Shown one piece after another: positions 3,541 to 47,596 of a stretch of DNA of 64,000 nt. The stretch is from Eubacteriaceae bacterium (GTDB taxonomy: Bacteria; Bacillota; Clostridia; Lachnospirales; Lachnospiraceae). The translations under genes were made by a program, and so were the position numbers. The notes under the pieces were generated by a model. The model did no database searches. It was not told the origin of the DNA and was given only the letters and a program-made list of their open reading frames with translations. The stretch is taken from assembly GCA_902362455.1 (NCBI GenBank), contig CABIWJ010000001.1, positions 62,001-126,000 on the forward strand, in the 5' to 3' direction. Numbering within the stretch: the first letter of the stretch is position 1; every line of letters starts with the position of its first letter.

Positions 3541-3620
3541 ATCAAACCTCATTTCTGCGTAATACGCTTAATCTATTTTAAATAATATCGGCAAAACGAG
3601 ATAAAATATTAATACTTAAC

Positions 3621-3649: not shown

Positions 3650-3689
3650 GTATACAAAGTGTTACGTGTAGAAAAAGGAGGATTTGGTT

Positions 3690-4610: not shown

Positions 4611-5271
4611 TAACTATCTGCCACTAAGAGATGTTGTATTTAATACACTTAGAGAGGCGATATTAAAAGGTGATTTAGAGCCGGGAGAACGTCTTATGGA
4701 GATAGCGCTTGCCCAGAAATTAGGCGTAAGCAGAACACCTATAAGAGAGGCAATCAGAAAGTTAGAATTAGAGGGGCTGGTAGTTATGACACCGCGAAAA
4801 GGTGCTGTGGTGGCTGAGATTACTTTAGAGGATCTGACAGACGTTTTAGAGGTAAGAAAGAATTTAGAAGAATTAGCAGTTGTATTATCCTGCAAGAAAT
4901 CTACGAGAGAAGATATAGAGGAAATGTGCAGATGCAATGAAGCATTTAAAAAGGCACTCTTATCAGATGACCTTACAGTAATGGCAGAGGCAGATGTGAC
5001 ATTTCATGATGTAATATATAAAACAACAGGTAATAAGAGACTCATACAGATACTTAATAATCTTCGTGAGCAGATGTACAGATATCGATTAGAATATATT
5101 AAGGACGAGAATAAACGAAAGATACTTGTAGCAGAACATGATACTTTAGTAAAGGCAATATCTGAGAGAAACCCTGATAAGGCAAAGAATGCAATCAAGC
5201 TTCATATTAATAATCAGGAGAAAACAATTATAGATAATCTGACAACAGAAAAGGCAGTGAAAAAAAGCTAA
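4585..5271 (+). CDS. GntR/FadR-family (FCD) transcriptional regulator
   Basis: ATG 4585 has GGAGG 6 bases upstream and overlaps ispE by 26 bases. The 228-residue protein has a GntR winged-helix N-terminus (about residues 10-75: ILKGDLEPGERLMEIALAQ, GVSRTPIREAIRKLELEGLV) and an all-helical FCD ligand-binding domain with the metal-site pattern D...H (DVTFHDVIYKTTGNKRL) and a late histidine (LHINNQEK). FCD regulators bind small organic acids or metal-bound ligands and release DNA. The effector is unknown; coupling to ispE may only reflect an operon common in relatives. Confidence 0.88.
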   Translation: MKELSMAIDNYLPLRDVVFNTLREAILKGDLEPGERLMEIALAQKLGVSRTPIREAIRKLELEGLVVMTPRKGAVVAEITLEDLTDVLEVRKNLEELAVVLSCKKSTREDIEEMCRCNEAFKKALLSDDLTVMAEADVTFHDVIYKTTGNKRLIQILNNLREQMYRYRLEYIKDENKRKILVAEHDTLVKAISERNPDKAKNAIKLHINNQEKTIIDNLTTEKAVKKS

Positions 5272-5375
5272 TAAGATTTCTTATATGCGAAGTTTAAGTT
5301 AATTATGAATAAGTGATTATGAATTGCACACACTAATACCTATGTAGCAGATGTAACAGGGTAGGAGGGTGTGCA

Positions 5376-6779
5376 ATGTTTTTGTCTAAATCATTTGAGA
5401 AAAACAAAAATATGCTTGATGATATATTCAAAAATTGTAATGATGTAAAATGTCTTGATGTAAATATGAAATATTTAGATGAGGTCAGGGGACGTATATA
5501 TTTCTTAGAGGAAACGGTAAGCGACATTACGATAAAAAAAGTTCTGTATGGACTTACAGATGTAGAAAAAGTTGATACAATTGAAAATGCTATAAAGGGT
5601 GTAATGATAGGAAATGCAATCCTGATTCTAGAGGGTGAAGATAAGGCATTAAAGATAAGAGGAGACGGCTATCCCGGAATGGGAGTTCAGGAAGCAAAAA
5701 ATGAACAGGTAATAAGAGGTTCACAGGAAGGTTTTTCGAGTTCATATAAAACTAATGAAATGCTTGTGAGAAAGAGAATAAGAAGTCATGAACTTAAAAT
5801 CGAAGAGCAATTCGCAGGAGTCAGGACCAATACAGGAATTGCATTATTATATATGGATACAATTGTGGATAAAGGGTTATTAAAAGAGATTAAATCAAGG
5901 TTAGATGACTTTACGATTGATGGATTTATGGACAGCGGTGTAATCGAACAACTTACAAATGACAATGATTTGTCACCATTTCCACAATATATGACAACCG
6001 AAAGACCTGACAGGGCAGCACAATTTCTGTTAAACGGACACGTTGTAGTATTAGTCGATAATTCACCAATTGCACTGGTATTGCCTGTTAATTTTTCGTC
6101 ATTTATGAAAACCTCAGATGATTATTTTGAACATTGGGGACTTGTTACATTTACAAGGATATTGAGATATATAGCTGTGTTTTTCGCAATTTCGCTTCCA
6201 GCATTATATATTTCAGTTGTTAATTTTCACCCGGAGATATTACCGGTAAATCTTGTGATGATATTCATAAATGCAAGACGGGGAATACCATATCCGGTAT
6301 TTGTCGAAGTCATAATTATGGAGATTTCATTTGAATTAATCAGAGAGGCGGGAGTAAGAATACCGGGAGCTATGGGAAATGCAATCGGGATAGTAGGAGG
6401 TCTTATCGTTGGTTCGGCAGCAGTAGATGCTTCATTAGCAAGCCCGATAGTGGTAATTGTTGTGGCACTTACAGCATTGTGTTCATTCACTATTCCTAAT
6501 AATGAATTCTCATCTTCATTTAGAATTATAAAATATTTTCTGATTCTCACATCGGCAATCTGGGGGATATACGGATATATATTAGGCATTATGTGTGTAC
6601 TTATTCATCTTAGCGGTCTGATAAGCTATTCATTTCCATATCTCGGACCTGTCGCAGGCGGAGAAATTAACAGAGCTGAGAGGGGCAGGGATTTTATAAT
6701 TCGTGCACCTTTTAAATATCTTACGAGCAGGCCGGTATTTGCAAGAAAAGACAATCGCAGAAAACAGAGAATTAAGTGA
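5376..6779 (+). CDS. GerA-family spore germination receptor, A subunit
   Basis: ATG 5376 with AGGAGGG 6 bases upstream; 467 residues, the usual length. GerA A subunits sit in the inner spore membrane and, with B and C subunits, sense germinants. Residues 1-240 form the soluble N-terminal region; from about residue 255 come hydrophobic segments, with the family blocks LPALYISVVNFHPEILP, RRGIPYPVFVE and EAGVRIPGAMGNAIGIVGG. The C-terminal tail is basic. Nine bases separate it from the fused B/C subunit gene, and both form a two-gene operon in place of the usual three. Confidence 0.93.
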   Translation: MFLSKSFEKNKNMLDDIFKNCNDVKCLDVNMKYLDEVRGRIYFLEETVSDITIKKVLYGLTDVEKVDTIENAIKGVMIGNAILILEGEDKALKIRGDGYPGMGVQEAKNEQVIRGSQEGFSSSYKTNEMLVRKRIRSHELKIEEQFAGVRTNTGIALLYMDTIVDKGLLKEIKSRLDDFTIDGFMDSGVIEQLTNDNDLSPFPQYMTTERPDRAAQFLLNGHVVVLVDNSPIALVLPVNFSSFMKTSDDYFEHWGLVTFTRILRYIAVFFAISLPALYISVVNFHPEILPVNLVMIFINARRGIPYPVFVEVIIMEISFELIREAGVRIPGAMGNAIGIVGGLIVGSAAVDASLASPIVVIVVALTALCSFTIPNNEFSSSFRIIKYFLILTSAIWGIYGYILGIMCVLIHLSGLISYSFPYLGPVAGGEINRAERGRDFIIRAPFKYLTSRPVFARKDNRRKQRIK

Positions 6780-6788
6780 GGTAGTAGA

Positions 6789-8933
6789 ATGTATGGGAAT
6801 AACAAGATATCAGCACGACAGATAAAAAGGCTTATTATTGTAGAGGTATTGGCTGTCAGCAGTCTTATTTCTACAGATATTGCAGCAAAATACAGCGGAC
6901 ACGATGGAATATTTGCAATTTTAATCGCAGGAATATTGTCATACGCATATACAGCGGTAATACTCTGGATATGCAGGTATACTAAGTGGAATTTCTGGGA
7001 TTATACGGAGAAATATTATGGCAAATTGTGCAGTAAAATAATTGCATTTTTATTTTTTATTAAATATTTCATTCTTGCTATAATGACAATAGCTTTTTTT
7101 ACGAAGTTAATCAAAATCGAGGTCATAGATGAATTAAATTATGTATTTATATTTGTACCGGTTCTGTTGCTTGCGTTATATGGGGCTGCGAAGGGAATAG
7201 AAGCGAGAGGGCGGTTAGCAGAGTGTCTGTATATGGTATTTATGATACCTGTTATATTATTAATTATATTTGCAATAAGGGGAGTCGATATTTATTACAT
7301 TTCACCATTATTTGTATCAGGTATAAGCCGAACGCTCAAAGGAGCAGTAATATTATTTCTGATTTTCGCACCTGCAGAGATATTGCTTTTAGAAAGCAGC
7401 CATTTCTCTATAGAAGATAGTGAGGATTATGTTATTTTTAGAAAATACGTGTTCAGTGGAATTACTGTTGCAATCGTAATAAACATAATTATATTTGCAC
7501 TAAATGTAGGCAATCTGGGACTGAATACTGTATTGCAAAACGATGAGTCAACTGTGAAATTAATGGATACAGTTAAAATCTCAGGCTTGATTCTGGAAAA
7601 ACAGGGGGGTTTGTATCTTGTATTCTTTATTATGGCGCTTATCGTTACCTTGACAGGCTTGTTTGGAAATATATTTAATCTGTTGGATGTGATGTGTGGG
7701 TTATGCCACATTGGTAATAAAAATGTTGAAAGCAGAAATAAAGAATGTAGTAAACAAAATGAAGAAAATGTGGAAAATAAGAATTACAGGAATCTTCCAT
7801 ATGAAAGTATGAAGTTAAAAAGAATAAACATTATAAAATATGTCATAACGGGTCTGGTAGTAACTTTTGGCATAGTTGCAGTTGTTAACGAAAACAATAA
7901 ATTTAAAACAGTTATGGCATCAGGTGAAAAGCGGGTGGAAATTGATAGCAGGGAATATGTTGACAGTATATTTGTTGGTGTCAATGACGGAGAATATGAG
8001 GTTATATTATCATTTAATAATGGCGAAAAAGACAGTGATTTCAGAAACTTTAAAATGAAAAATATAGGTGGTCTGAACGAGGCATATCAAAAAAGTACGG
8101 ACAAGAAAATAGATTTCTCAAATGTGCAGGCAATTATTCTGAATGTTGATGTATACAAAGACTATCAGAAATTCTATGAGATTGTGAAAATGCTTAATAA
8201 TGAAGCAGAACTTTCAGACAATGTATATATATATGCGACAGATGAGCCGGTGGAAAGATTTAGTGACGTGGGAGGTGTTAATTTACCGGGGAAATATATA
8301 AGCGATATGACAGACAAGAATTTAGAATATGGCAAAACAACAATTGAAGATGTGCGAAAGGTAATAAATAAAACTGAAGAAACATGTATTATCAGTATAT
8401 TTAATATTAAAAATGAAGAGATATACCAGGACGGAATGATAATAATGAATGATGAGGGAGTAAAGGGAGAGTTCAAAGAAGAAATGGCAGATTATATCTG
8501 GCTTGCGAATGGAAGTGAGGGGATGTATATTGTCCTTGGAAATGGAAATGGAAATGGAAATGGAAATGGAAATGGAAATGGAAATGGAAATGGAAATGGA
8601 AATGAAAATGAATTTCATATAGATAAAAATTCCTACCACATAAGTCTTAGCACATCAGATAATGACAACATAGAAGTTAGAATTATATATAGAGGCATGA
8701 TTTCACCGATTAATGGTTCTACAATAGATGAAAATGAAGCAAATGAGTTAATAAAAGTAGTAATTTATAATAATCTACGGACGTTACTTGAGGAAAATAA
8801 ATGTGATCTCATAAATGTCTATAAATATCTGAGTGCAGCAGACAGGCATATATATAAGAAATATAACGAAGACAGACATAAGTTATACGAGAAAATTAAG
8901 TTTGTAATACAGACGGAGTACAAACTTGTATAG
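6789..8933 (+). CDS. Fused germinant receptor B and C subunits (GerAB-GerAC)
   Basis: 714 residues, about twice a GerAB permease. Residues 10-305 are an APC-type permease with about ten hydrophobic segments (SARQIKRLIIVEVLAVSSL at the start). A charged Asn/Glu linker (305-342) leads into one more membrane segment (346-366) and an exported region that follows the Ger(x)C pattern, ending with a C-terminal domain (VRIIYRGMISPING, then NKCDLINVYKYLSAADRH). GerAC is normally a separate lipoprotein; here the extra helix replaces the lipid anchor. A (Gly-Asn)11 tract lies at about residues 584-605. No separate C subunit gene follows. The GerAC assignment rests on pattern, not a search. Confidence 0.8.
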   Translation: MYGNNKISARQIKRLIIVEVLAVSSLISTDIAAKYSGHDGIFAILIAGILSYAYTAVILWICRYTKWNFWDYTEKYYGKLCSKIIAFLFFIKYFILAIMTIAFFTKLIKIEVIDELNYVFIFVPVLLLALYGAAKGIEARGRLAECLYMVFMIPVILLIIFAIRGVDIYYISPLFVSGISRTLKGAVILFLIFAPAEILLLESSHFSIEDSEDYVIFRKYVFSGITVAIVINIIIFALNVGNLGLNTVLQNDESTVKLMDTVKISGLILEKQGGLYLVFFIMALIVTLTGLFGNIFNLLDVMCGLCHIGNKNVESRNKECSKQNEENVENKNYRNLPYESMKLKRINIIKYVITGLVVTFGIVAVVNENNKFKTVMASGEKRVEIDSREYVDSIFVGVNDGEYEVILSFNNGEKDSDFRNFKMKNIGGLNEAYQKSTDKKIDFSNVQAIILNVDVYKDYQKFYEIVKMLNNEAELSDNVYIYATDEPVERFSDVGGVNLPGKYISDMTDKNLEYGKTTIEDVRKVINKTEETCIISIFNIKNEEIYQDGMIIMNDEGVKGEFKEEMADYIWLANGSEGMYIVLGNGNGNGNGNGNGNGNGNGNGNENEFHIDKNSYHISLSTSDNDNIEVRIIYRGMISPINGSTIDENEANELIKVVIYNNLRTLLEENKCDLINVYKYLSAADRHIYKKYNEDRHKLYEKIKFVIQTEYKLV
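8538..8603 (+). repeat. Hexanucleotide tandem repeat (GGAAAT)11
   Basis: Eleven perfect GGAAAT units followed by a degenerate GAAAAT, inside the germination gene, coding for Gly-Asn repeats. Unit length is two codons, so copy number changes alter a linker without breaking the frame. Confidence 0.95.
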
Positions 8934-37071: not shown

Positions 37072-38670
37072 ATGGCAGAATCAGATAACGGCAAAGATTT
37101 AATTAGCGTATTATGGAATGGAGCAGATATTTTGCGCTCTAAAATGGATGCAAATGAGTATAAGGATTACTTATTAGGAATAGTATTTTATAAGTATTTA
37201 TCAGATTCTTTTCTGATTGAAGTATATGATTTAATATATGATGAAAGACCTGAAAATCTAAAAGAAGCATTAGAGGCATATAAAGAGGCATTAGAATATG
37301 AGAGTGCAGAAGTATTAAAAGGACAGATAAAGTCAAGATGTCATTATATAATAGAACCCGAATTGACATATACAAGTTTTGCAGAGGCGGCAAAAAATAA
37401 TGCATTTAATCGTGAACAGCTACAAAAAGGATTTAACAATATTGAGCAGAGTGATCCTTTATTTGCAGATTTATTTACGGATATTGATTTATATTCTAAC
37501 AGACTTGGGACAGGCGATCAGAAACAGAGTGATACAATATCTAACCTGATTAAGGAGATTGATAAAGCAGATTTACTTAATTCTGATACAGAAGTGCTTG
37601 GAAATGCATATGAGTATTTGATTGGACAATTTGCTTCTGAAACAGGAAAAAAAGCAGGAGAATTCTATACACCTCAGGCGGTATCAAAGATTTTAACGAA
37701 AATAGCAATTGCAGGTCAGGAATCAAAGAGAGGTCTGTCTATATACGACCCATGTATGGGTTCAGGCTCACTTTTATTAAATGCTAAGAAATACTCGACA
37801 GAGCCACAGTATATCAGATATTACGGACAGGAATTAAATGTGTCTACATACAATCTGGCGAGAATGAATATGTTTTTGCATGGAGTTGATCCACAGAACC
37901 AGACTCTTCGTAATGGTGATACACTTGATGGAGATTGGCCTACAGGAGAAGAGACAGATTTCAATATGGTACTTATGAATCCACCATATTCTGCTAAATG
38001 GAGTGCAGCACCAGGCTTCCTACAAGATGAAAGATTTAGTGATTACGGAGTACTTGCACCTAAATCAAAAGCAGATTATGCATTTTTACTTCATGGATTA
38101 TATCATCTTAAGAATAACGGAACTATGGCTATTGTTTTACCACATGGAGTGTTGTTCAGAGGTGCAGCCGAGGGCAAAATAAGAGAAAAATTACTTAGAG
38201 CAGGGAATATATATGCTGTTATCGGACTTCCTGCAAATTTATTCTATAATACTTCTATTCCAACCTGTATTGTCGTATTAAAGAAACATAGGGATGGACG
38301 AGATGTGTTATTCATAGATGCATCAAAAAAGTTTGACAAGGGCAAGAAACAGAATTCAATGACAGATGAACACATAGAAGAAGTCATTAATTTATATAAC
38401 AACAGAGAAACAGTCGAGAAAGAAGCTTATCTGGCAAGCTTTGAAGATATAGAAAAGAATGATTTTAATCTCAATATTCCACGATATGTTGATAATTTCG
38501 AAAAGGAAGAAGAAATAGATATAAATGCATTACTTGATGAAATGAAGCAGACCGATGAAGAAATTGTACAGACAGAGACGGAGTTTGTGTCACTTCTTAA
38601 GGAACTCACAACTTCGGATGAAAATATTATGGCTTCTTTGGAACGCTATATTAGTATGATGGAGAGGTGA
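37072..38670 (+). CDS. hsdM: Type I restriction-modification methyltransferase subunit
   Basis: N6-adenine methyltransferase that works as M2S with HsdS. 532 residues; GGAGG upstream of ATG 37072. The N-terminal helical domain (ISVLWNGADILRSKMDANEYKDYLLG) precedes the N6_Mtase core: KKAGEFYTPQAVSKIL (about residue 197), the SAM-binding DPCMGSGSLLLNA (about 225) and catalytic NPPYSAKW (about 302). The C-terminal helices contact HsdS. hsdS starts within a few bases of the stop codon, giving tight coupling. Confidence 0.97.
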   Translation: MAESDNGKDLISVLWNGADILRSKMDANEYKDYLLGIVFYKYLSDSFLIEVYDLIYDERPENLKEALEAYKEALEYESAEVLKGQIKSRCHYIIEPELTYTSFAEAAKNNAFNREQLQKGFNNIEQSDPLFADLFTDIDLYSNRLGTGDQKQSDTISNLIKEIDKADLLNSDTEVLGNAYEYLIGQFASETGKKAGEFYTPQAVSKILTKIAIAGQESKRGLSIYDPCMGSGSLLLNAKKYSTEPQYIRYYGQELNVSTYNLARMNMFLHGVDPQNQTLRNGDTLDGDWPTGEETDFNMVLMNPPYSAKWSAAPGFLQDERFSDYGVLAPKSKADYAFLLHGLYHLKNNGTMAIVLPHGVLFRGAAEGKIREKLLRAGNIYAVIGLPANLFYNTSIPTCIVVLKKHRDGRDVLFIDASKKFDKGKKQNSMTDEHIEEVINLYNNRETVEKEAYLASFEDIEKNDFNLNIPRYVDNFEKEEEIDINALLDEMKQTDEEIVQTETEFVSLLKELTTSDENIMASLERYISMMER

Positions 38671-38675
38671 TGAGT

Positions 38676-39878
38676 ATGAAAAAACCAAAGATTAGATTTA
38701 AAGGTTATACGGAAGATTGGGAACAGCGTAAGTTGGGGGATATAGCTGATGTAACAAAACTTGCGGGGTTTGAATTTACTGAACATGTTGTCTATTCAGA
38801 TGAGGGCAATATTATCGCATTGCGAGGATTGAACATAAAAAATGGTCAGTTGATTTTAGATGATGTTAAGTATATAGATGGAAGTAATTTTTCTAAACTA
38901 AGTCGTAGTAAGTTATTTATAGATGACATCATGTTTACCTATGTCGGTACTGTTGGTGAAGTAGCTATAATCAAGGAAAATGATAGATTTTATCTTGCAC
39001 CGAATGTTTCGAGAATTAGAGTTAAAAGTGATGATTCACCCAAATTCATTAGCCATTATATGAGGACAGATAATTTTAAAAACAAGGTGATTTTTCCGTT
39101 AATTGCAACTTCATCACAGCCAGCACTAAGCATGGAAAATATTAGAAAATTTACTATTAATATTCCTATAAGCAGAGAAGAACAAGACTGTTTAGCAAAA
39201 TATTTTGATAACCTCGACCAACTCATCACTCTTCACCAGCGAAAGTGTAATCAAGCTAAAAAATTAAAAAAATATATGCTACAAAAAATGTTTCCACAAA
39301 ATGGTGAAAAGATTCCGGAGATTAGATTTGATGGATTTACTGACGATTGGGAACAGCGTAAGTTGGGGGATATATGTCAAGTTATAATGGGACAATCTCC
39401 TGATGGTTCAACATATAGTGAAGAACCAAGTGATTATATTTTAGTTCAAGGGAATGCTGATTTAAAAGATGGATGGGTAGAACCAAGAATTTGGACTACA
39501 CAAAAGACAAAAACTGCACAGGCAGGAGATTTGATTATGAGTGTTCGCGCACCAGCAGGAACAATGGGTAAAACTGCCTATGATGTAGTACTTGGCAGGG
39601 GCGTGGCAGGGATTAAAGGCAACGAGTTTGTATATCAATCACTTGTAAAAATGGATTCCGATGGTTATTGGAAAAAGATGGCTGCTGGATCAACTTTCGA
39701 ATCTATAAATTCAGATGTTGTAAAAAATGCAGAAATGCCTATACCGCAAGATATAGAGGAACAAGGTAAAAACGGTTTATGTTTTATGACCCTCGACCAC
39801 CTCATCACTCTTCACCAAAGAAAGTGCGATGAAATGAAAAAAATCAAGAAATTTATGTTGCAAAATATGTTTGTATAG
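38676..39878 (+). CDS. hsdS: Type I restriction specificity subunit, complete
   Basis: Two target-recognition domains (TRDs) set the DNA sequence methylated and cut. ATG 38676 lies 9 bases after GGAGAGG; 400 residues. TRD1 starts at EDWEQRKLGDIAD (about residue 13) and ends at LDQLITLHQRK; a helix (KKLKKYMLQKMFPQNGEKIP) links it to TRD2, which begins at DDWEQRKLGDICQ and ends at LDHLITLHQRK plus the helix EMKKIKKFMLQNMF. The two halves share near-identical DNA at both edges, matching the two downstream silent cassettes, so TRD2 can be exchanged. Confidence 0.95.
   Translation: MKKPKIRFKGYTEDWEQRKLGDIADVTKLAGFEFTEHVVYSDEGNIIALRGLNIKNGQLILDDVKYIDGSNFSKLSRSKLFIDDIMFTYVGTVGEVAIIKENDRFYLAPNVSRIRVKSDDSPKFISHYMRTDNFKNKVIFPLIATSSQPALSMENIRKFTINIPISREEQDCLAKYFDNLDQLITLHQRKCNQAKKLKKYMLQKMFPQNGEKIPEIRFDGFTDDWEQRKLGDICQVIMGQSPDGSTYSEEPSDYILVQGNADLKDGWVEPRIWTTQKTKTAQAGDLIMSVRAPAGTMGKTAYDVVLGRGVAGIKGNEFVYQSLVKMDSDGYWKKMAAGSTFESINSDVVKNAEMPIPQDIEEQGKNGLCFMTLDHLITLHQRKCDEMKKIKKFMLQNMFV
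38715..38740 (+). repeat. hsdS start repeat A
   Basis: Begins GATTGGGAACAGCGTAAG; opens TRD1. Core CAGCGTAAG at 38724-38732. Confidence 0.9.
39212..39247 (+). repeat. hsdS end repeat 1
   Basis: CCTCGACCAACTCATCACTC then TTCACCAGCGAAAGTG; closes TRD1. CAGCGAAAG at 39237-39245 differs from the start-repeat core by one base. Confidence 0.9.
39345..39370 (+). repeat. hsdS start repeat B
   Basis: Identical over 26 bases to repeat A; opens TRD2. Core CAGCGTAAG at 39354-39362. Confidence 0.92.
39791..39826 (+). repeat. hsdS end repeat 2
   Basis: CCTCGACCACCTCATCACTC then TTCACCAAAGAAAGTG; closes TRD2. The core is the most diverged of the set. Confidence 0.88.
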
Positions 39879-39893
39879 GAGGAAATGTGCAAA

Positions 39894-40547
39894 ATGAACA
39901 AAATTATTTTATATCATGGTACTCCTAACAAGGTTGTTGAACCAATATTTGGTGGTGGCGATGATAAACATGATTATGGAAAAGGATTTTATTTGACTGA
40001 AAATATAGAGCTCGCTAAGGAATGGGCGGTATGCAGACCAAATGAAACTAATGGATGGGTTCACAAGTATGAATTAGATTGCGAAGGTTTAAAAATATTA
40101 GATTTTCAGGAAAAAGATGTTTTGTCATGGCTTGCAGAATTGATGAAACATCGTGATGCGGCAGATACGAAACGATATAGAATGTTGGCAAAAAAATTTA
40201 TTGAAAAATATGGAATAGACACCAACGAATATGATGTTATAAAGGGATGGCGTGCTAATGCATCATATTTCTATATTGCTAAAGAATTTGTTAGAGATAA
40301 CATAGATATGGATATACTTGAAGAATTACTTTCTCTTGGTGGATTGGGAATTCAGTATTGTATAAAATCAGAATTAGCATATTCAAAATTGCATGAAATT
40401 TGTGAAGATTTGCTTTTGGTAAATTACAATGAGTTCAATAATAGATATAATCTGAGAGATGTTGAAGCTAGAAAGAATATGCGAAATTTAGTGAATTCTG
40501 ATGCTAATAAAGTAACTAAAGTATTTAGTACACTGTTCGAGAGGTGA
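39894..40547 (+). CDS. DUF3990 putative ADP-ribosyltransferase, module 1
   Basis: ATG 39894 lies 11 bases after AGGAGG (ATG 39885 would be only 2 away); about 217 residues. The N-terminal half follows DUF3990, a family of the ADP-ribosyltransferase fold: ILYHGTPNKV (His of the H-Y-E pattern), KHDYGKGFYLTENIELAKEWA (Tyr block), VHKYELDCEGLKILDF, EYDVIKGWRAN. The C-terminal half (VRDNIDMDILEELLSLGGLGIQYC) may regulate it. No signal peptide, so it acts in the cytosol. It begins 15 bases after hsdS and is followed by an overlapping small gene and a NADAR gene, a toxin-antitoxin-like layout. Activity is inference. Confidence 0.72.
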   Translation: MNKIILYHGTPNKVVEPIFGGGDDKHDYGKGFYLTENIELAKEWAVCRPNETNGWVHKYELDCEGLKILDFQEKDVLSWLAELMKHRDAADTKRYRMLAKKFIEKYGIDTNEYDVIKGWRANASYFYIAKEFVRDNIDMDILEELLSLGGLGIQYCIKSELAYSKLHEICEDLLLVNYNEFNNRYNLRDVEARKNMRNLVNSDANKVTKVFSTLFER

Positions 40548-40552
40548 TGAAA

Positions 40553-40969
40553 ATGAGAGCATACTCAGATGTATATTTAGGAGATGTTGTAGAGAATCAA
40601 GGAAAATTATTTGATTATGTGGCACAGGAATATCCTGATAAAGATACTGAGGATTTCATACAAACATATATGGCAAGTAAAACCAGAAGAAGCATAGATG
40701 AAGCGAAAGCATATGTTAATACCATGGATTCTATGGAATTATGGAAATATTTTCAAGAAAATGAACAATATAAATTAAAACCCGGAAAAGCACTTGATGG
40801 TTTTTTGCCAGACTGGGTAGGCGAATTTTATGCATACTATCAATGGTATTATAATAAGCCTAGTGATGAAATTGTAAAAAAAATACCAATTGATTTTTTG
40901 AAGAAAGCATATTACGGACTTCATGACCTTGATTTAGATTTGGCGGTTCAGAAAGTTGGTGAGGTATAG
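40553..40969 (+). CDS. Small partner gene of the DUF3990 module 1
   Basis: The stop of the DUF3990 gene overlaps the start region (GTG 40544, ATG 40547 or ATG 40553; the last has the best spacing to GAGAGG); about 139 residues. The product is acidic and helical with an aromatic core (DWVGEFYAYYQWYYNKPSDEI) and ends KKAYYGLHDLDLDLAVQKVGE. I recall similar short genes beside DUF3990 genes in Clostridia, but cannot name a family with certainty. Overlap on both sides with the ART-like gene and NADAR gene suggests one co-translated unit, perhaps antitoxin or adaptor. Confidence 0.65.
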   Translation: MRAYSDVYLGDVVENQGKLFDYVAQEYPDKDTEDFIQTYMASKTRRSIDEAKAYVNTMDSMELWKYFQENEQYKLKPGKALDGFLPDWVGEFYAYYQWYYNKPSDEIVKKIPIDFLKKAYYGLHDLDLDLAVQKVGEV

Positions 40970-41445
40970 TGAACATAATATGTTTTCATAACCCTGATGA
41001 AGAAAATGGATTTTTAAGTAATTGGTATCTTTCTAAATTTGTAGTAAACGAAATAGAATACACATCAATGGAACAGTATATGATGTATCAAAAGGCAATT
41101 TATTTCAATGATAATGATATTGCAGAACAGATTTTAGAAACACAAGATGTAGCACAAATTAAAGGTTTAGGTCGTCTTGTATCAAACTACAATGATAATA
41201 TTTGGAATGGTATTAGACAAATCATTGTTTATGAAGGATTAATTGCTAAATTTACACAGAATGAAAATCTTTATAAAAATTTAAAAGATACAAAAAATGC
41301 AATATTAGCAGAATGTGCAGTAAGGGATTGCATTTGGGGAATCGGATTATCTATGACTGACCCTAAAAGATTAGATATAAACGAATGGAAAGGGCAAAAT
41401 TTACTGGGATATTCACTAATGTTGGTTAGAAATAAGCTAAAATAA
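40969..41445 (+). CDS. NADAR-family ADP-ribosyl-guanine glycosidase-like protein
   Basis: Its GTG start shares a base with the previous stop (TAGTG); 158 residues, the usual NADAR/YbiA length. Motifs: FHNPDEENGFLSNWY, VNEIEYTSMEQYMMYQKAIYF (Glu and Gln of the pocket), AECAVRDCIWGIGLSM and NLLGYSLMLVRNKL. NADAR proteins cleave the N-glycosidic bond of ADP-ribose attached to guanine and serve as antitoxins to DarT-type transferases. Placement behind a DUF3990 gene suggests it reverses that enzyme's mark. Its stop overlaps the ATG of the next hsdS cassette (TAATG), tying it to the array. Confidence 0.85.
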   Translation: MNIICFHNPDEENGFLSNWYLSKFVVNEIEYTSMEQYMMYQKAIYFNDNDIAEQILETQDVAQIKGLGRLVSNYNDNIWNGIRQIIVYEGLIAKFTQNENLYKNLKDTKNAILAECAVRDCIWGIGLSMTDPKRLDINEWKGQNLLGYSLMLVRNKLK

Positions 41446-41978
41446 TGGCTATAGATTGGGAACAGCGTAAGTTGGGGGAGGTTGCAGCTTCTTTTGAATA
41501 CGGATTGAATGCAGCAGCAAAAGAATATGATGACGAAAATAAATATATTAGAATTACAGATATTGACGATAACACACATGAGTTTTTAACAGATAGTCTT
41601 ACTTCTCCAGATATTGATTTAACTGGTGCAGATAATTACAAACTAACTGAAGGAGATATTCTGTTTGCAAGAACAGGTGCAAGTGTCGGAAAATCTTATA
41701 TTTACAGGAATTCTGATGGATTAGTTTACTATGCAGGATTCTTGATTCGAGCAAGAATTAAAGAAGAATATGATGCGGAATTTGTATTTCAGAATACTTT
41801 GACAGACAGATATAACAAGTATATTGCTGTAACTTCTCAACGTTCTGGACAACCAGGAGTAAATGCACAGGAATATGCAGAATTTGAAATTAAAGTTCCT
41901 AAAAAGGAAGAACAGACCAAAATCGGAGCGTATTTTAAACAATTAGACCACCTCATCACTCTTCACCAGCATAAGTAA
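41445..41978 (+). CDS. Half-hsdS cassette (TRD3)
   Basis: 177 residues holding a single recognition domain. It begins DWEQRKLGEVAASF right after the shared stop/start TAATG, includes a complete TRD (ILFARTGASVGKSYIYRN, QRSGQPGVNAQEYAEFEIKVP) and ends LDHLITLHQHK then TAA inside the end repeat, lacking the C-terminal helix of full HsdS. It can be read as a silent donor for TRD2 or as a co-translated half subunit that could dimerise. Same strand and start repeat as hsdS. Confidence 0.85.
   Translation: MAIDWEQRKLGEVAASFEYGLNAAAKEYDDENKYIRITDIDDNTHEFLTDSLTSPDIDLTGADNYKLTEGDILFARTGASVGKSYIYRNSDGLVYYAGFLIRARIKEEYDAEFVFQNTLTDRYNKYIAVTSQRSGQPGVNAQEYAEFEIKVPKKEEQTKIGAYFKQLDHLITLHQHK
41454..41480 (+). 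repeat. hsdS start repeat C
   Basis: Same 26 bases as repeats A and B, continuing GGAGG; opens TRD3. Core CAGCGTAAG at 41463-41471. Confidence 0.92.
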
Positions 41979-41982
41979 TTTT
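41946..41982 (+). repeat. hsdS end repeat 3
   Basis: GACCACCTCATCACTCTTCA then CCAGCATAAGTAATTTT. CAGCATAAG at 41967-41975; the in-frame TAA ends the cassette. Confidence 0.9.
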
Positions 41983-42032
41983 GGTAATAAAAATAAAATT
42001 AATATAAAAAATGTCGTGGAAGGAGGCACTTT

Positions 42033-42509
42033 ATGAAAAAAGAAAGTATAGAATTGTATCATGGAAGTGGAGAAATTATTTATTTTCCTGAAGTAAGAAA
42101 AACAAAATACACAAAAGATTTTTCATGGGGCTTTTACTGTACTAAAAATTATGAACAAGCTAGTAGATGGGCGGAAAGAAAACATAGTAATGGTGTGGTT
42201 AATGTATATAGATATACTGAAAATGAAGAATTAAATATTAAAAAGTTTGAAAAAATGACGGACGAATGGCTTGATTTTATAGCTGATTGTCGTGCGGGAA
42301 AAGTTCATGAATATGATATAGTTGAGGGACCTATGGCTGATGATACAATTTGGAATTTTGTTAATGATTTTCTTAATGGAAATATAAGCAGAAGTGTTTT
42401 TTGGGAATATGCTAAATTTAAACATCCAACACACCAGATAAGTTTTCATAGTTTGCGTGCATTGGAGTGTTTAGAATTTGAAAGGAGCGTAAAACTATAT
42501 GAAGAATGA
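42033..42509 (+). CDS. DUF3990 putative ADP-ribosyltransferase, module 2
   Basis: 158 residues; GGAAGGAGG precedes ATG 42033. It matches DUF3990 more plainly than the module 1 protein: IELYHGSGEIIYFPEVRK, KDFSWGFYCTKNYEQASRWAER, NGVVNVYRYTENEELNIKKF, EYDIVEGPMADDTIW, and a C-terminal HQISFHSLRALECLEF. His (YHGS) and Tyr (GFYCT) of the ART pattern are kept. It overlaps the next small gene by 11 bases. Likely an intracellular ADP-ribosyltransferase toxin or effector; the target is unknown. Confidence 0.8.
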   Translation: MKKESIELYHGSGEIIYFPEVRKTKYTKDFSWGFYCTKNYEQASRWAERKHSNGVVNVYRYTENEELNIKKFEKMTDEWLDFIADCRAGKVHEYDIVEGPMADDTIWNFVNDFLNGNISRSVFWEYAKFKHPTHQISFHSLRALECLEFERSVKLYEE

Positions 42510-42939
42510 AGATGATTTATTTTTTGTATGTACAATGATAGAATGTGTTGCCAGAACGACTCATAATAAACCTAAGGATATTGTAGCGAAAATATCAGAT
42601 AGTGAATTGATACATGAATTAAAAGTTGCGAGTGTTAATCATTGTTTGTCATTTGAACAGATATGCGATGAGTGGATTGAAAAATTCCATATACAAAATG
42701 GTAAATTTGAAAATATATCAGAGTGTAAATATAATGTTCCGACCGAAACATCAATTGGCAGAGTCTATCAGACATTAATATCAAATGTTTGTGAGTCAGA
42801 TGAAGAACTTATTTCTACAATTAGAAGAGTATATAATTCGTTTATTAGTGATGAAATATCAAATTTTAATTCAAATGTATACTATTCAAATCCTGATTAT
42901 ATAAAATGTTCCTATGAGGCTGGAGAATTATTAGCATAA
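42499..42939 (+). CDS. Small partner gene of the DUF3990 module 2
   Basis: 146 residues; AAAGGAG lies upstream inside the DUF3990 gene, which it overlaps by 11 bases. Helical, soluble: DLFFVCTMIECVARTTHNK, VASVNHCLSFEQICDEWIEKF, VPTETSIGRVYQTLIS, SNVYYSNPDYIKCSYEAGELL. No NADAR gene is present in this module, so this protein is the only candidate antitoxin. It is not clearly similar to the 139-residue partner in module 1. The stop codon abuts the TTG that opens the next hsdS cassette. Confidence 0.68.
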   Translation: MKNEDDLFFVCTMIECVARTTHNKPKDIVAKISDSELIHELKVASVNHCLSFEQICDEWIEKFHIQNGKFENISECKYNVPTETSIGRVYQTLISNVCESDEELISTIRRVYNSFISDEISNFNSNVYYSNPDYIKCSYEAGELLA

Positions 42940-43443
42940 TTGACAAATGTTTGGGAACAGCGTAAGTTGGGGGAGGTTTTAAAAGAACGTTCAGAAAGAG
43001 CAATTGGTGATGAAGAATTATTATCTGTAACGATTGGTAATGGCGTTATTAAGCAAGTAGATTCAGATAAAAGAAATACAGCTTCTGAAGATAAAAGTAA
43101 TTATAAAAAGGTAAGAAAAGGAGATTTACCATATAACTCTATGAGAATGTGGCAAGGTGCTGTCGGAAACTCAGAATATGAAGGAATAGTAAGTCCTGCA
43201 TACACTGTATTAGTTCCAACGGATGAATCAAATAGTAAGTTTTTCGAGGAGTTATTTAAAAAGAAATCCACTTTGCAAATATTCCAAAGATGGTCTCAAG
43301 GGTTAACCTCTGACACATGGAATTTAAAATATCCAGCATTATCTACTATTCGGTTTTTTATTCCATCAGTGGAAGAACAAACAAAAATTGCGGAGTATTT
43401 TAGTTCCCTCGACCAACTCATCACTCTTCACCAGCATAAGTAA
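42940..43443 (+). CDS. Half-hsdS cassette (TRD4)
   Basis: 167 residues from a TTG directly after the previous TAA. Starts VWEQRKLGEVLKERSERA, holds one TRD (LPYNSMRMWQGAVGNSEYEGIVSPAYTVL, WSQGLTSDTWNLKYP) and ends LDQLITLHQHK then TAA in the end repeat, as TRD3 does. No ribosome site of its own is obvious, so it is either coupled to the upstream gene or silent. It is the last cassette before hsdR. Confidence 0.83.
   Translation: MTNVWEQRKLGEVLKERSERAIGDEELLSVTIGNGVIKQVDSDKRNTASEDKSNYKKVRKGDLPYNSMRMWQGAVGNSEYEGIVSPAYTVLVPTDESNSKFFEELFKKKSTLQIFQRWSQGLTSDTWNLKYPALSTIRFFIPSVEEQTKIAEYFSSLDQLITLHQHK
42950..42976 (+). repeat. hsdS start repeat D
   Basis: TTTGGGAACAGCGTAAG then TTGGGGGAGG; opens TRD4, differing from repeat C only at its left edge. 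Core CAGCGTAAG at 42958-42966. Confidence 0.92.
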
Positions 43444-43448
43444 TTTTT
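43407..43448 (+). repeat. hsdS end repeat 4
   Basis: CCTCGACCAACTCATCACTC, then TTCACCAGCATAAG and TAATTTTT; shares its right part with end repeat 3 and its left part with end repeat 1, a mosaic expected from recombination. CAGCATAAG at 43432-43440. Confidence 0.9.
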
Positions 43449-43528
43449 TAACCACATTTTCACACGAAAAACAACGAGTTTTAAATGAATTTTATAATTA
43501 ATAAACGATAGAAAAGGAGATATTTATA

Positions 43529-46495
43529 ATGGAATTAGAGTCAATGATAGAAAAGAAACTTATTGAGCAATTGATTTATGGCGATTCTCAATGGACATAC
43601 AGGGAAGATTTGAAAACAGAAGAAGATTTATGGAAGAATTTTAAGTATATTCTTGAGCAGAATAATAAGGATAGATTAAATGGTGAAAAATTATCCGACG
43701 CCGAGTTTGAACAGGTAAAGAACCAGTTACAATTTTCTTCGTTTTATAAAGCAGGCGAGTGGCTTGTGGGAGAGAATGGAAAAGTCCAGGTTCATGTGCA
43801 GCGTGATACAGAGAGATTACATCTCGTAGTAATGAATCATGAACATATTGCAGGAGGAAGCAGCGTATATGAAGTCATTAATCAATATAATGCATTAAAA
43901 ACAGATGAAGATATTAATGCACATGATAGAGACAGACGATTTGATGTGACACTTATGATTAATGGACTGCCTATGATACATATTGAGTTGAAGAATAAGC
44001 AACATTCGTATATGGACGGTTTCCGGCAGATAAAGAAATATATTGGTGAGGGGAAATTTACGGGTATATTTTCGGCTGTCCAGATGTTTGTTATAAGTAA
44101 TGGTGTCGATACTAAATACTTTTCAGCAGCAAGTGATACGGAATTAAATCCAGAGTTCATCAGTGGCTGGCTGGATAAAGAGAATAATCCTATTTCAGAT
44201 TATATTGATTTTGCGAAAGGTGTACTTAGTATTCCACAGGCACATGAGATGATTGCAAGATACACAGTTCTTGATGAAAAAGCTAAAAGACTTATTTTAC
44301 TTCGCCCTTATCAGATTCATGCAATTGAGTCTATAAGAGAAGCCTCAAGAACTGGTAAATCGGGGTTTGTATGGCATACTACAGGTTCGGGTAAAACATT
44401 AACTTCATATAAGGCGACAAGAAATCTGTTGATGGACATTCCGGCAATTGATAAAACTATATTTCTGATAGACAGAAAAGATTTAGATACACAGACAACT
44501 GTTGCATTTAAGGCATATGCGAATAACGATTTGATAGATGTTGATGAAACAGATAATGTAAATGATTTGAAAAATAAATTGAAATCAGATGATAGACAGG
44601 TAATTGTTACAACAATTCAGAAGTTACAGAGACTTATTACTAAGAGATTACAGGAAAATACTCCTGAATACAATAAGATAAGAAACTTGAAAATTGCATT
44701 TGTGGTAGATGAATGTCATAGAGCTGTAACACCTAATACGAAGAGGGATATAGAAAGATTTTTTGGTAATTCATTATGGTATGGATTTACGGGGACACCA
44801 AGATTTGCAGAGAATCCATATCCTCAGATGGGGGATTTGCCACGTACAACAGAAGAGTTATATGGTAAATGCTTACATAGATATACTATTCAGAATGCAA
44901 TACATGATAATGCTGTATTAGGATTTCAGGTAGAACATAATGGACCGAAGAATATTAAAGATGAAACAGATAGCAGTATATATGACAATGAAACTCATAT
45001 GCTAAAAGTTTTAGATATTATTTTAAATAAATCATATCATAAGCTTGGATTCCAAAATGGCAAAGGAAAAACATATGAGGGAATGCTTACCACAAGCTCG
45101 ATTCAGATAGCACAGAAATATTACGAGTTATTGAAAAAGGTAAAAAATGGCGAGACATCTTTGAAAATAGACGATAAGATAAAACAGGTATTACCGGATT
45201 TTCCTAAATTCGCCATAACATATTCTGTATCTGAAAATGAAGAAAGTTCACAGGTAAATCAAAATAAAATGTTAGAATCACTAGATGATTATTATGAAAT
45301 GTTTGGTAAGAAATACGAACTTTCTCAAATACAGACATACAATGAGAATCTTAATAACAGGCTTGCGAGAAAAGATTCAAGGTATAAGAGTAGAAATGAG
45401 CAGTTGGATTTAGTTATTGTTGTTGACAGATTACTTACTGGATTCGATGCACCATGTTTATCGACTATATATATAGACAGACAGCCAATGGGACCACATG
45501 ATCTTATTCAGGCATTTTCAAGAACAAATAGAATTTATGAAAAGAATAAAAAATATGGACAGATTGTCACATTTCAGGCACCTCATTTATTTAAGGAAAG
45601 TGTTGATAAAGCGGTAAAACTTTACTCAGCAGGAAGTACTGAAACTGCACTTGTAGCAGAATGGGACGAAGTTGAACCGGCATTTAGAAAGGCTCTTTCG
45701 GCACTTAGAATATCGGCAGAGAAACCAGAAGATGTTCCGGGACTGTCACATAAGGAGAAAGAGATATTTGTTAAAACGTTTCAGAATTTTGACAAATTAT
45801 TTGCACAATTGAAGTCATTTAGTCAATATGAGGATAATATGCTTGAAGAATATGAAATCACAGAGCAGGAGTACATAGATTATGCAGGACATTATCTGAA
45901 TGCCAGAGAAGAGATTATGTCAGACAGGGATAAGCTGTCAGAAGTAGAAGATGATATTGCTATGGATATGGATTATGAATTGATGGCATATAGTAATACA
46001 AAAATTGATTACGAGTATATTATTAATCTTATCCAGAATATCGTAACATCAGATGATGGGGAGGAACTTACACCTGAGCAGAGGCAGAAACAGATTGATG
46101 AAGTTAAACAATATGTTGATGAGCTTAGAAAAGATAACCCGAAGGTTGCAGATATTATGTCTAATCTTATATATGAAATTGAATCAGATAGTAACAAATA
46201 TAGAGGTAAATCAATTCTGAATATTGTAGACAATATGAAACAGGAATGCATAGATAAGGTAATAACGGATTTCTGTATTACATGGTATGCTTCAAAGTCA
46301 GATGTTATGTATGCTGCTACACATTATAGAAATGGCATAATTCCGAATGAGACTGTGATAACGACAACAATAGATTATAAAAGCTACAGGGCATCGCAGG
46401 AGAATGCTTTGCACAAATTTCAATATTACAATAAGGTAATGGAAGAACTTAGAAAGACTTTAGATGAAGAGATAAAACCACTTCTTAATAATTAA
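43529..46495 (+). CDS. hsdR: Type I restriction endonuclease subunit
   Basis: 988 residues; AAAAGGAGAT upstream. HsdR translocates and cleaves DNA in the R2M2S complex. The N-terminal PD-(D/E)xK nuclease shows FDVTLMINGLPMIHIELKNK; the motor has Walker A TTGSGKTLTSYKA (about residue 285), VVDECHRAV (about 391), GFTGTPRF, and helicase motif VVDRLLTGFDAPCLSTIY and QAFSRTNR. The C-terminal helical part is intact. With hsdM and hsdS the restriction system looks functional, so specificity switching would matter for both protection and attack. Confidence 0.96.
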   Translation: MELESMIEKKLIEQLIYGDSQWTYREDLKTEEDLWKNFKYILEQNNKDRLNGEKLSDAEFEQVKNQLQFSSFYKAGEWLVGENGKVQVHVQRDTERLHLVVMNHEHIAGGSSVYEVINQYNALKTDEDINAHDRDRRFDVTLMINGLPMIHIELKNKQHSYMDGFRQIKKYIGEGKFTGIFSAVQMFVISNGVDTKYFSAASDTELNPEFISGWLDKENNPISDYIDFAKGVLSIPQAHEMIARYTVLDEKAKRLILLRPYQIHAIESIREASRTGKSGFVWHTTGSGKTLTSYKATRNLLMDIPAIDKTIFLIDRKDLDTQTTVAFKAYANNDLIDVDETDNVNDLKNKLKSDDRQVIVTTIQKLQRLITKRLQENTPEYNKIRNLKIAFVVDECHRAVTPNTKRDIERFFGNSLWYGFTGTPRFAENPYPQMGDLPRTTEELYGKCLHRYTIQNAIHDNAVLGFQVEHNGPKNIKDETDSSIYDNETHMLKVLDIILNKSYHKLGFQNGKGKTYEGMLTTSSIQIAQKYYELLKKVKNGETSLKIDDKIKQVLPDFPKFAITYSVSENEESSQVNQNKMLESLDDYYEMFGKKYELSQIQTYNENLNNRLARKDSRYKSRNEQLDLVIVVDRLLTGFDAPCLSTIYIDRQPMGPHDLIQAFSRTNRIYEKNKKYGQIVTFQAPHLFKESVDKAVKLYSAGSTETALVAEWDEVEPAFRKALSALRISAEKPEDVPGLSHKEKEIFVKTFQNFDKLFAQLKSFSQYEDNMLEEYEITEQEYIDYAGHYLNAREEIMSDRDKLSEVEDDIAMDMDYELMAYSNTKIDYEYIINLIQNIVTSDDGEELTPEQRQKQIDEVKQYVDELRKDNPKVADIMSNLIYEIESDSNKYRGKSILNIVDNMKQECIDKVITDFCITWYASKSDVMYAATHYRNGIIPNETVITTTIDYKSYRASQENALHKFQYYNKVMEELRKTLDEEIKPLLNN

Positions 46496-46547
46496 ACTGA
46501 CTTTAATAACTGCCAACATTTATAAAATTACATTTAAAAACGTTTAT

Positions 46548-46562
46548 ATCAGCGTAAGCATT
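46548..46562 (+). repeat. Left inverted repeat flanking the recombinase gene
   Basis: ATCAGCGTAAGCATT, exact reverse complement at 47582-47596. Contains CAGCGTAAG (46550-46558), the core of the hsdS start repeats. Confidence 0.9.
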
Positions 46563-46583
46563 ACAGAGAAATGGAGGTAGTTA

Positions 46584-47510
46584 ATGCTAAATGATATGAA
46601 CGGAAATTCACTATTTTGTGATTATTATAAACAATGGGTTGATGTATATAAGAAAGATGCAATAAGAGAAGCTACGATGTCAAAGTACAAGATGACACAG
46701 AAATGGGTGGAAAGACTTGCACCGGAATTAAAGGTTTGTGAGATGTCAAGGACAGCATATCAACAGATTTTGAATGAATATGCAAAAGAACACGAAAGGC
46801 AGACGACGCTTGACTTTCATCATCAGCTAAAAGGGGCTATATTAGATGCTGTGGACGAAGGTCTTATAGAAAGGGATCCCACTAGAAAAGCAATTATAAA
46901 AGGCAAAACACCAAGAGAAAAGAAGATAAAATATCTGAATCAGTTTGAACTTCATACATTAATAGCGAATCTTGATATAAAAGAAGAAGCGAATTGGGAT
47001 TGGTTTATAATGCTGGTTGCCAAAACAGGAATGCGCTTTTCGGAGGCACTTGCCATTACACCTAAGGATTTTGATTTCTCAAGGCAGACACTCTCGATAA
47101 GTAAAACATGGGATTACAAAGGAGATGGAGGCTTTTTGCCAACTAAGAATAGTTCGTCAGTTAGAAAGATTCAGATTGACTGGCAGATAGTTGTTAAATT
47201 CTCTGAATTAGTAAAAGGTATGCCGGAAGATAAACCTATATTTGTGGGTAAATCCAAAATCTATAATTCAACAGTTAATGATGTTCTTTCAAGACATTGC
47301 AGAGAATGTGGAATATCAGAGATTTCCATACATGGACTTAGACATACTCATGCATCATTACTTTTATTTGCGGGTGTATCTATTGCAAGTGTTGCGAGGA
47401 GACTTGGACATGCCAGTATGACAACTACTCAGAAAACATATCTTCATATTATTCAGGAATTAGAGAATAAAGATGTGGATTTGGTAATGAGAACGTTATC
47501 AGGACTATAA
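46584..47510 (+). CDS. Tyrosine recombinase of the hsdS locus
   Basis: 308 residues; GGAGGT precedes ATG 46584. N-terminal SAM-like/arm-binding helical domain (residues 1-110), catalytic domain with TGMRFSEAL (Arg about 151), SIHGLRHTHASLL (His-x-x-Arg, about 250), ARRLGHASMTTTQKTYLHI (His and the nucleophilic Tyr). All catalytic residues are present. Integrases in this position shuffle hsdS recognition domains in many Firmicutes. It lies 88 bases after hsdR, within a perfect inverted repeat sharing the hsdS core sequence. A stray prophage integrase is less likely since no phage genes are near. Confidence 0.93.
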   Translation: MLNDMNGNSLFCDYYKQWVDVYKKDAIREATMSKYKMTQKWVERLAPELKVCEMSRTAYQQILNEYAKEHERQTTLDFHHQLKGAILDAVDEGLIERDPTRKAIIKGKTPREKKIKYLNQFELHTLIANLDIKEEANWDWFIMLVAKTGMRFSEALAITPKDFDFSRQTLSISKTWDYKGDGGFLPTKNSSSVRKIQIDWQIVVKFSELVKGMPEDKPIFVGKSKIYNSTVNDVLSRHCRECGISEISIHGLRHTHASLLLFAGVSIASVARRLGHASMTTTQKTYLHIIQELENKDVDLVMRTLSGL

Positions 47511-47581
47511 TGTAATATAAGATATATGCAAATAAAAATATATAAATATAATTTTAAATTCTAATGTAAAATGTAATTGTA

Positions 47582-47596
47582 AATGCTTACGCTGAT
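47582..47596 (-). repeat. Right inverted repeat flanking the recombinase gene
   Basis: AATGCTTACGCTGAT, reverse complement of 46548-46562; core on the minus strand at 47586-47594. Confidence 0.9.

What the first reader, a model, noticed from the sequence alone, without database searches (positions are those of the whole stretch)
38676..47596. Direct-repeat hsdS cassette array with ADP-ribosylation modules built into it
Seen: after a complete hsdS come two half-hsdS recognition cassettes in the same orientation. Each is preceded by a module led by a DUF3990 putative ADP-ribosyltransferase, in the order TRD2 - module 1 (with NADAR) - TRD3 - module 2 - TRD4 - hsdR - tyrosine recombinase. All TRDs open with a near-identical 26-base repeat. 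Known: tyrosine recombinases shuffle hsdS genes, usually by inversion between opposed copies. Here all copies are direct, so recombination B x C or B x D would excise a TRD together with one or both toxin-like modules, changing specificity. Inference: the modules may penalise cassette loss (addiction), keep the array stable, or act as a second defence layer tied to each specificity.
Basis: partly seen in the sequence, partly recalled or inferred. Interest (0 to 1): 0.88.

Follow-up and report, generated by a model that had tools for sequence, protein, structure and literature searches.

The report
Shuffling restriction locus carrying ADP-ribosyltransferase modules
A gut bacterium's DNA-cutting defence locus keeps four interchangeable DNA-recognition cassettes that are reshuffled in nature, and two toxin-like ADP-ribosylation modules lie between the cassettes and appear to move with them.

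Summary
The order is hsdM, full hsdS (TRD1, TRD2), DUF3990-B-NADAR, half-hsdS (TRD3), DUF3990-B, half-hsdS (TRD4), hsdR, tyrosine recombinase. Every TRD is bounded by direct repeats: R1 at its start, R2 at its end. The array shuffles in nature: 14 HsdS proteins (13 besides the window's own) carry the window's linker with two of these four TRDs at 99-100% identity, in 9 of 12 ordered pairs. Some begin at the module borders, so linker and modules also change neighbours; one fits an excised circle with TRD1, TRD2 and module 1. The modules match PADLOC candidates PDC-M42 and PDC-M10; the modelled DUF3990 has the ADP-ribosyltransferase fold. A related locus keeps both modules in place while nearly all TRDs differ. 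Arrays exist without such modules and modules without arrays, so addiction is not needed; I favour an embedded second-line defence (inferred). New variant of a known kind.

The parts
37072..38670 (+). hsdM, type I methyltransferase
   Evidence: Pfam N6_Mtase 356.9 bits, HsdM_N
38667..39878 (+). full hsdS (TRD1, linker, TRD2, C-terminal tail)
   Evidence: Pfam Methylase_S, two stretches; PADLOC Specificity_I
38715..38740 (+). direct repeat R1, copy A (start of TRD1)
39213..39239 (+). direct repeat R2, copy A (end of TRD1)
39345..39370 (+). direct repeat R1, copy B (start of TRD2)
39792..39818 (+). direct repeat R2, copy B (end of TRD2)
39885..40547 (+). module 1 gene A: DUF3990 putative ADP-ribosyltransferase (PDC-M42A)
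   Evidence: Pfam DUF3990 134.9 bits, PDC-M42A 417.5 bits, model with ART-fold neighbours
40544..40969 (+). module 1 gene B: unknown (PDC-M42B)
   Evidence: PADLOC 252.7 bits; no Pfam family; low-confidence helical model, pLDDT 57.5
40969..41445 (+). module 1 gene C: NADAR domain protein (PDC-M42C), putative ADP-ribosyl-guanine hydrolase
   Evidence: Pfam NADAR 159.3 bits; closest solved structure by sequence 8bau
41445..41978 (+). half-hsdS cassette TRD3, closed by R2 and a stop
   Evidence: Methylase_S; start overlaps the NADAR stop
41454..41479 (+). direct repeat R1, copy C (start of TRD3)
41943..41969 (+). direct repeat R2, copy C (end of TRD3)
42033..42509 (+). module 2 gene A: DUF3990 putative ADP-ribosyltransferase (PDC-M10A)
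   Evidence: Pfam DUF3990 175.9 bits, PDC-M10A 268.3 bits
42499..42939 (+). module 2 gene B: unknown (PDC-M10B)
   Evidence: PADLOC 191.5 bits; no Pfam family
42940..43443 (+). half-hsdS cassette TRD4 (TTG start), closed by R2 and a stop
   Evidence: Methylase_S
42949..42974 (+). direct repeat R1, copy D (start of TRD4, one mismatch)
43408..43434 (+). direct repeat R2, copy D (end of TRD4)
43529..46495 (+). hsdR, type I restriction subunit
   Evidence: PADLOC REase_I 531.4 bits
46584..47510 (+). tyrosine recombinase, outside the array; presumed shuffling enzyme
   Evidence: Phage_integrase 83.7 bits; beside hsd genes in many relatives; alignment A1

Best explanation
[quoted passage not shown] The linked tyrosine recombinase (inferred) recombines the direct repeats R1 and R2 that bracket each TRD. 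The stretches between TRDs are themselves exchangeable pieces: the HsdS linker, module 1 with the HsdS tail, and module 2. DNA leaves as circles (inferred, mainly from one protein) and re-enters at another repeat, so the four TRDs change places and the modules change neighbours. Shown: the anatomy, the TRD permutations, and the module-border rearrangements at protein level. The modules are ADP-ribosyltransferase units (fold supported for module 1, activity not shown), most likely embedded second-line phage defence or toxin-antitoxin units that lie in line with the hsd genes and act when phage damages or inhibits the restriction system, as PrrC does, or as DarTG sitting in the same slot. That last step is inference.
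Confidence: 0.72

Rival explanations
1. Addiction: the modules are toxin-antitoxin pairs that kill cells which lose an excised circle, so the array cannot shrink.
For: Modules lie between direct repeats and would be lost with a circle; NADAR is a known antitoxin of DarT (abstracts); the nearest folds include toxin-antitoxin toxins (ParT, MbcT, NatT). In tvr, disrupting tvrT made the shortened locus more prominent.
Against: 4 of 16 slots with three or more R2 sites have no DUF3990-type module (one of them, L147, has another cargo) and 4 of 9 with fewer have one. In tvr, passage and growth tests found no evidence of addiction by TvrAT, though the authors do not rule it out in some growth phases (PMC6265443 section 19).
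Confidence: 0.15
2. Recombinase control: module proteins set the rate of shuffling, as TvrAT does in tvr and SpxA1-TenA does for hsdS inversions.
For: Loss of tvrT raises tvrR expression (PMC6265443); SpxA1-TenA changes hsdS inversion (PMC11709252 abstract); a Fic/DOC gene occupies the slot in L157.
Against: Here the recombinase gene lies beyond hsdR, not directly behind the modules as in tvr; no DNA-binding domain was recognised in the modules, although their B proteins match no Pfam family; arrays without such modules exist.
Confidence: 0.15
3. Passive cargo: the gap between hsdS and hsdR is a tolerant insertion spot; modules hitch-hike there with no working tie to specificity.
For: Several unrelated cargoes occur there: PDC-M42, M10, M13, Fic/DOC, DUF4869 plus ATPase; modules also stand alone elsewhere.
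Against: The M42C stop lies 2-15 bases before R1's TGG in 6 of the 7 loci where an R1 follows M42C; both modules stay in the same slots in L121 while nearly all TRDs differ.
Confidence: 0.25
4. The TRD permutations arose by ordinary homologous recombination between or within strains, not by this recombinase.
For: Only proteins were seen; limited shuffling went on without TvrR in tvr.
Against: R1 is only 26 bases yet kept as DNA across genera; the recombinase is beside hsd genes in many relatives.
Confidence: 0.12

Closest known systems
SpnIV tvr locus of Streptococcus pneumoniae (PMC6265443)
   Same: hsdM, TRD segments and hsdR in one locus; two types of direct repeat, all in one orientation; tyrosine recombinase; shuffling by excision-reintegration; a toxin-antitoxin homologue inside the array.
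   Different: Here the recombinase lies outside the array after hsdR; TRDs pass between the N- and C-terminal halves, whereas in tvr each TRD type keeps its half; cargo is two ADP-ribosyltransferase modules instead of phd-doc; the TRD next to hsdM also varies (T1, T3 or T4 behind MSMKKP).
[quoted passage not shown] coli (PMC12255303)
   Same: An ADP-ribosylating toxin-antitoxin unit in the same place of a type I locus.
   Different: No TRD array or recombinase in the passages seen; toxin family DarT2, not DUF3990.
PADLOC candidates PDC-M42 and PDC-M10
   Same: All five module proteins match their models.
   Different: The models say nothing about repeats or shuffling. That PDC stands for phage defence candidate and that these came from 'guilt by embedding' (Payne et al.) is recalled; only a citation of that idea was seen.
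PrrC with EcoprrI (PMC2610378)
   Same: A toxic enzyme linked to a type I system and held in check by it.
   Different: PrrC is an anticodon nuclease; no check by HsdMSR was tested here. That prrC lies between hsdS and hsdR is recalled.

Membership tests
tvr-type excision-reintegration locus | Three or more TRD segments between hsdM and hsdR, all repeats in one orientation | tested here: met
tvr-type excision-reintegration locus | Two types of direct repeat sharing a core | tested here: inconclusive
   Two types, R1 and R2, are present. CAGCGTAAGT is shared by R1 and many R2 copies in relatives, but the window's R2 copies differ from it
tvr-type excision-reintegration locus | Linked tyrosine recombinase | tested here: met
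   46584-47510; it lies outside the array. Homology to TvrR itself was not tested
tvr-type excision-reintegration locus | hsdS shuffled among strains | tested here: met
   9 of 12 ordered TRD pairs in the same scaffold
tvr-type excision-reintegration locus | Circular intermediates | tested here: inconclusive
   P0003 on a 2,744-bp contig against 2,739 expected; no reads
tvr-type excision-reintegration locus | N- and C-terminal TRD types kept apart (as in tvr) | tested here: not met
   T1-T2 and T2-T1, T1-T3 and T3-T1, T3-T4 and T4-T3 all occur; so it works like tvr but is not filed as a tvr locus
PDC-M42 / PDC-M10 | All component models match | tested here: met
DarT toxin family | DarT domain | tested here: not met
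   Pfam at E <= 0.1 gives DUF3990 and ART-PolyVal (below its cut-off), no DarT
ADP-ribosyltransferase superfamily | ART fold | tested here: met
   M42A model pLDDT 82.1; best neighbours are ARTs at modest Z; DUF3990 is listed in Pfam's ART clan (PMC7955679). Activity untested
PrrC-like guarded toxin | Held in check by the restriction complex | not testable with these tools
   needs experiment
Inversion-type hsdS shuffler | Opposed repeat copies | tested here: not met
   all four R1 and R2 copies are on the + strand

The most novel reading that the evidence does not exclude
The locus is an integron-like cassette platform for immunity: one recombinase and two repeat types exchange both DNA-recognition domains and whole defence modules (M42, M10, M13, Fic/DOC, DUF4869-ATPase), so a lineage can change its restriction specificity and its back-up toxin through the same sites.
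Probability: 0.35. Interest if true: 0.82.

Novelty: new variant of a known kind. Interest (0 to 1): 0.62.

Why it matters
Among the papers I saw, direct-repeat TRD shuffling with a toxin-like cargo has been worked out in the pneumococcus only. Here it appears in gut Lachnospiraceae and relatives, with exchange between HsdS halves and with ADP-ribosyltransferase modules inside the moving stretch. That makes two questions testable: whether defence modules are exchanged as cassettes, and whether embedded toxins guard, stabilise or regulate a shuffling restriction system.

Tried and rejected
Tried without result: the window's own genome is not held. An exact border pattern (module-1 end plus R1) in viral contigs gave 0 hits. 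Plasmid and phage records hold no place covering 80% of the array; the best phage record looks like bacterial DNA. M42B gave a low-confidence model and was not interpreted. M42B and M10B show no relation in a profile comparison. A profile of the DUF3990 proteins found no ADP-ribosyltransferase by sequence among solved structures. PHROGs gave no family for the DUF3990 or B proteins. Contig lengths of M42A clusters were examined as a trace of breaks at the repeats and are only weak support (see full report).

Literature: no paper in the held library has DUF3990 with hsdS or with DUF3791; 4 hold DUF3990 at all. For hsdS, Lachnospiraceae, phase variation, recombinase and gut (4 of 5 terms) 33 papers matched and 20 were listed; for hsdS with excision, direct repeats and cassette terms 64 matched and 25 were listed; for tvr terms 16 matched and were listed. 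By title and abstract start I recognised none as this system outside the pneumococcus; I did not open most of them. No preprints are held.

Rejected: that half-HsdS is fused to HsdR in relatives. The frames run together, but HsdR keeps its own start codon, usually behind a GGAG- or GGGG-like stretch, in nearly all plus-strand loci listed. Also rejected: that every module ends with an in-frame start for the next TRD; for M42C this holds in 3 of 7 loci. My notebook entry lists L187, L189 and L193 as opposed hsdS arrays; on re-reading their hsdS pieces share one strand, so they are dropped here.
Full report
What is there. Between hsdM (37072-38670) and hsdR (43529-46495) lie a full hsdS with two target-recognition domains (TRD1, TRD2), then module 1 (DUF3990, an unknown protein, NADAR), a half-hsdS (TRD3), module 2 (DUF3990 and an unknown protein) and a second half-hsdS (TRD4). 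A tyrosine recombinase follows hsdR (46584-47510). All are on the + strand. PADLOC's models place the modules as PDC-M42 (A, B, C) and PDC-M10 (A, B).

The repeats are kept as DNA, not only as protein. In the window plus 80 loci found through the recombinase (the best 80 of 494 confirmed stretches), 107 of 109 sites that encode WEQRK use one 15-mer, although 48 are possible; 47 of the 81 loci hold at least one such site. R2 varies more: 134 sites in 63 loci, at least 12 spellings. In 60 relatives' genomes the 18-base R1 core occurs exactly in 4 (6 places). Five of the 6 places are on contigs with hsdS genes of this kind, in G003, G023 and G033, which have a close recombinase; 1 is in G011, which lacks a close one. 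The control, the pattern read backwards, gives 0. Several genomes with a close recombinase (for example G020, G029, G046, G052) have no exact 18-mer.

The array shuffles in nature. I searched a database of 5.8 billion proteins with the window's HsdS and with a hypothetical HsdS that carries TRD3 and TRD4. Each search scored only about 8,000 candidates that shared most words and listed the best 120; together they gave 234 distinct proteins. Fifteen of the 234 carry the window's exact linker. Fourteen of these (13 besides the window's own, P0002) have both TRDs from the window's set at 99-100% identity; the fifteenth, P0099, has TRD1 in second place, another TRD in first place and a different start. 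The ordered pairs are T1-T2 (P0002, P0003), T2-T1 (P0005), T1-T3 (P0053, P0055, P0071), T3-T1 (P0046), T3-T2 (P0050, P0051, P0076), T4-T1 (P0081), T4-T2 (P0086), T3-T4 (P0123) and T4-T3 (P0124): 9 of 12. T1-T4, T2-T3 and T2-T4 were not seen. Both silent cassettes therefore reach expressed positions, and TRDs pass between the two halves of HsdS.

The modules change neighbours too. The first residues show what lies upstream: MSMKKP follows hsdM, MAID is the right end of module 1, LTNV the right end of module 2. P0003, P0005 and P0123 begin with MAID and P0076 with LTNV, yet all four hold the linker and two TRDs. P0124 begins inside the repeat and tells nothing. P0071 is TRD1-linker-TRD3 with the silent HK tail, as a single R1B x R1C crossover gives; P0053 and P0055 have the same TRDs with the full tail, which needs a second exchange at R2. 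P0003 starts at module 1's right end and ends with the tail that in the window leads into module 1, so it fits a circle or a tandem copy. Its contig is 2,744 bp, and the circle from R1A x R1C would be 2,739 bp (38718 to 41457). P0005 and P0081 are each on a contig of 7,133 bp; if it is one contig it holds TRD1 twice, so a reintegrated circle or a misassembly is possible. These are inferences from proteins and contig lengths; I saw no DNA of the recombinants.

A weak trace in assemblies. Among the 120 best M42A clusters (mostly 82-87% identical, so other species), 67 have a longest contig under 4 kb. Fourteen of the 67 lie at 1,600-1,799 bp, against 0 in the 1,500s and 1 in the 1,800s; but 14 more lie spread over 1,000-1,299 bp, where short fragments are expected. 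The stretch from R2 to R1 around module 1 is about 1.64-1.69 kb here. This fits assemblies that break at both repeats because several TRDs flank the module, but it is only suggestive.

Relatives. The same order recurs. L121 has M42ABC, a half-hsdS, M10AB and a half-hsdS in exactly the same places. Against the window its HsdM is 87% identical, M42A/B/C 83/80/70%, M10A/B 86/76%, HsdR 81% and the recombinase 91%. TRD matches are 24-40% (short matches at the repeats and tail are higher), except that window TRD3 is 73% identical to the first TRD of L121's hsdS. So modules stay with the core while TRDs are replaced and change position. Modules also sit on other backbones: in L150 HsdM is 42% and HsdR 29% identical, yet M10A/B are 83/70% and the recombinase 86%; in L176 HsdM is 41% and HsdR 29%, M42A/B/C 73/70/68% and the recombinase 77%. 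In the 7 loci where an R1 follows M42C, the M42C stop lies 2-15 bases before R1's TGG in 6 and 51 in the seventh.

Census. Of the 81 loci (window and 80), 25 had hsdM, hsdR and recombinase in reach with hsdM and hsdR on the + strand; the other 56 were left out because of contig ends or other layouts. Of the 25, 16 carry at least one component of a DUF3990-type module (in L134 only an M10B-like gene): 12 of 16 with three or more R2 sites, 4 of 9 with fewer. The R2 count is a motif proxy; it undercounts L146 and L165, in which one search shows a further HsdS-like stretch ahead of HsdR. With those two moved the figures are 13 of 18 and 3 of 7. Other cargo in this slot: PDC-M13 (DUF3990 with a small partner), Fic/DOC (L157), DUF4869 with an ATPase (L135; L147 has the ATPase). 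Conversely, 8 of the 13 closest M42A matches and 2 of the 11 closest M10A matches in 299 family genomes lie beside hsd genes or hsd fragments; the rest do not. Some relatives of the recombinase sit in loci with opposed hsdS copies (L107, L169, L194 and others).

Known precedents. The pneumococcal SpnIV tvr locus shuffles hsdS by excision-reintegration through circles at two types of direct repeat, with the phd-doc homologues TvrAT in the array. Disrupting tvrT made the shortened locus more prominent; passage and growth tests found no evidence that TvrAT acts as an addiction system, though this is not ruled out in some growth phases; loss of tvrT raises recombinase expression (PMC6265443; read: abstract, sections 14 and 19, passages). 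[quoted passage not shown] coli island active against phage (PMC12255303, passages). PrrC is silenced by a linked type I enzyme and activated when a phage peptide neutralises it (PMC2610378, passages). So the machine is of a known kind; the differences are the recombinase outside the array, exchange between HsdS halves, and ADP-ribosyltransferase modules as exchangeable stretches.

Verdict. Shown: anatomy, TRD permutation, module-border rearrangement at protein level, conservation of the layout. Inferred: the recombinase as the agent, circles as intermediates, second-line defence as the modules' role. Addiction is not excluded but not needed.

Noticed in passing
L201 (MT837160.1) 1-8401: A record filed as 'Bacteriophage sp.' reads hsdM (partial), half-hsdS, M42ABC, half-hsdS, hsdR: bacterial DNA of the same kind, probably misfiled.
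   Followed up: partly
L122, L124, L129, L138, L149, L165 and others, upstream of hsdR: One to three silent TRDs run in frame into the hsdR reading frame, but HsdR keeps its own start.
   Followed up: yes
L157:838-1455: A Fic/DOC protein (PDC-S04) fills the slot between a half-hsdS and hsdR, recalling the Doc homologue of tvr.
   Followed up: partly
L135:8070-9482; L147:3609-5021: A two-gene cargo lies in the slot: DUF4869 and an ATPase (L135); in L147 the ATPase beside a 145-aa frame of matching size that was not scanned.
   Followed up: no
L105, L107, L169, L176, L186, L191, L194, L199: In these loci of the same recombinase family, hsdS pieces lie on both strands, so one recombinase family may serve both inversion and excision layouts.
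   Followed up: no
R1 and R2 in L121-L200: R1 and many R2 copies share CAGCGTAAGT; tvr's two repeats also share a core of about 11 bp.
   Followed up: no
P0208, P0219, P0227, P0233: Proteins starting MIHAW, 550-565 aa, hold a TRD3-like segment (94%) at different places among other TRD segments, which suggests a shuffling array in another species.
   Followed up: no
P0099: An HsdS with the window's exact linker and TRD1 but a TRD outside the window's set and another start: TRDs beyond these four reach the same scaffold.
   Followed up: no
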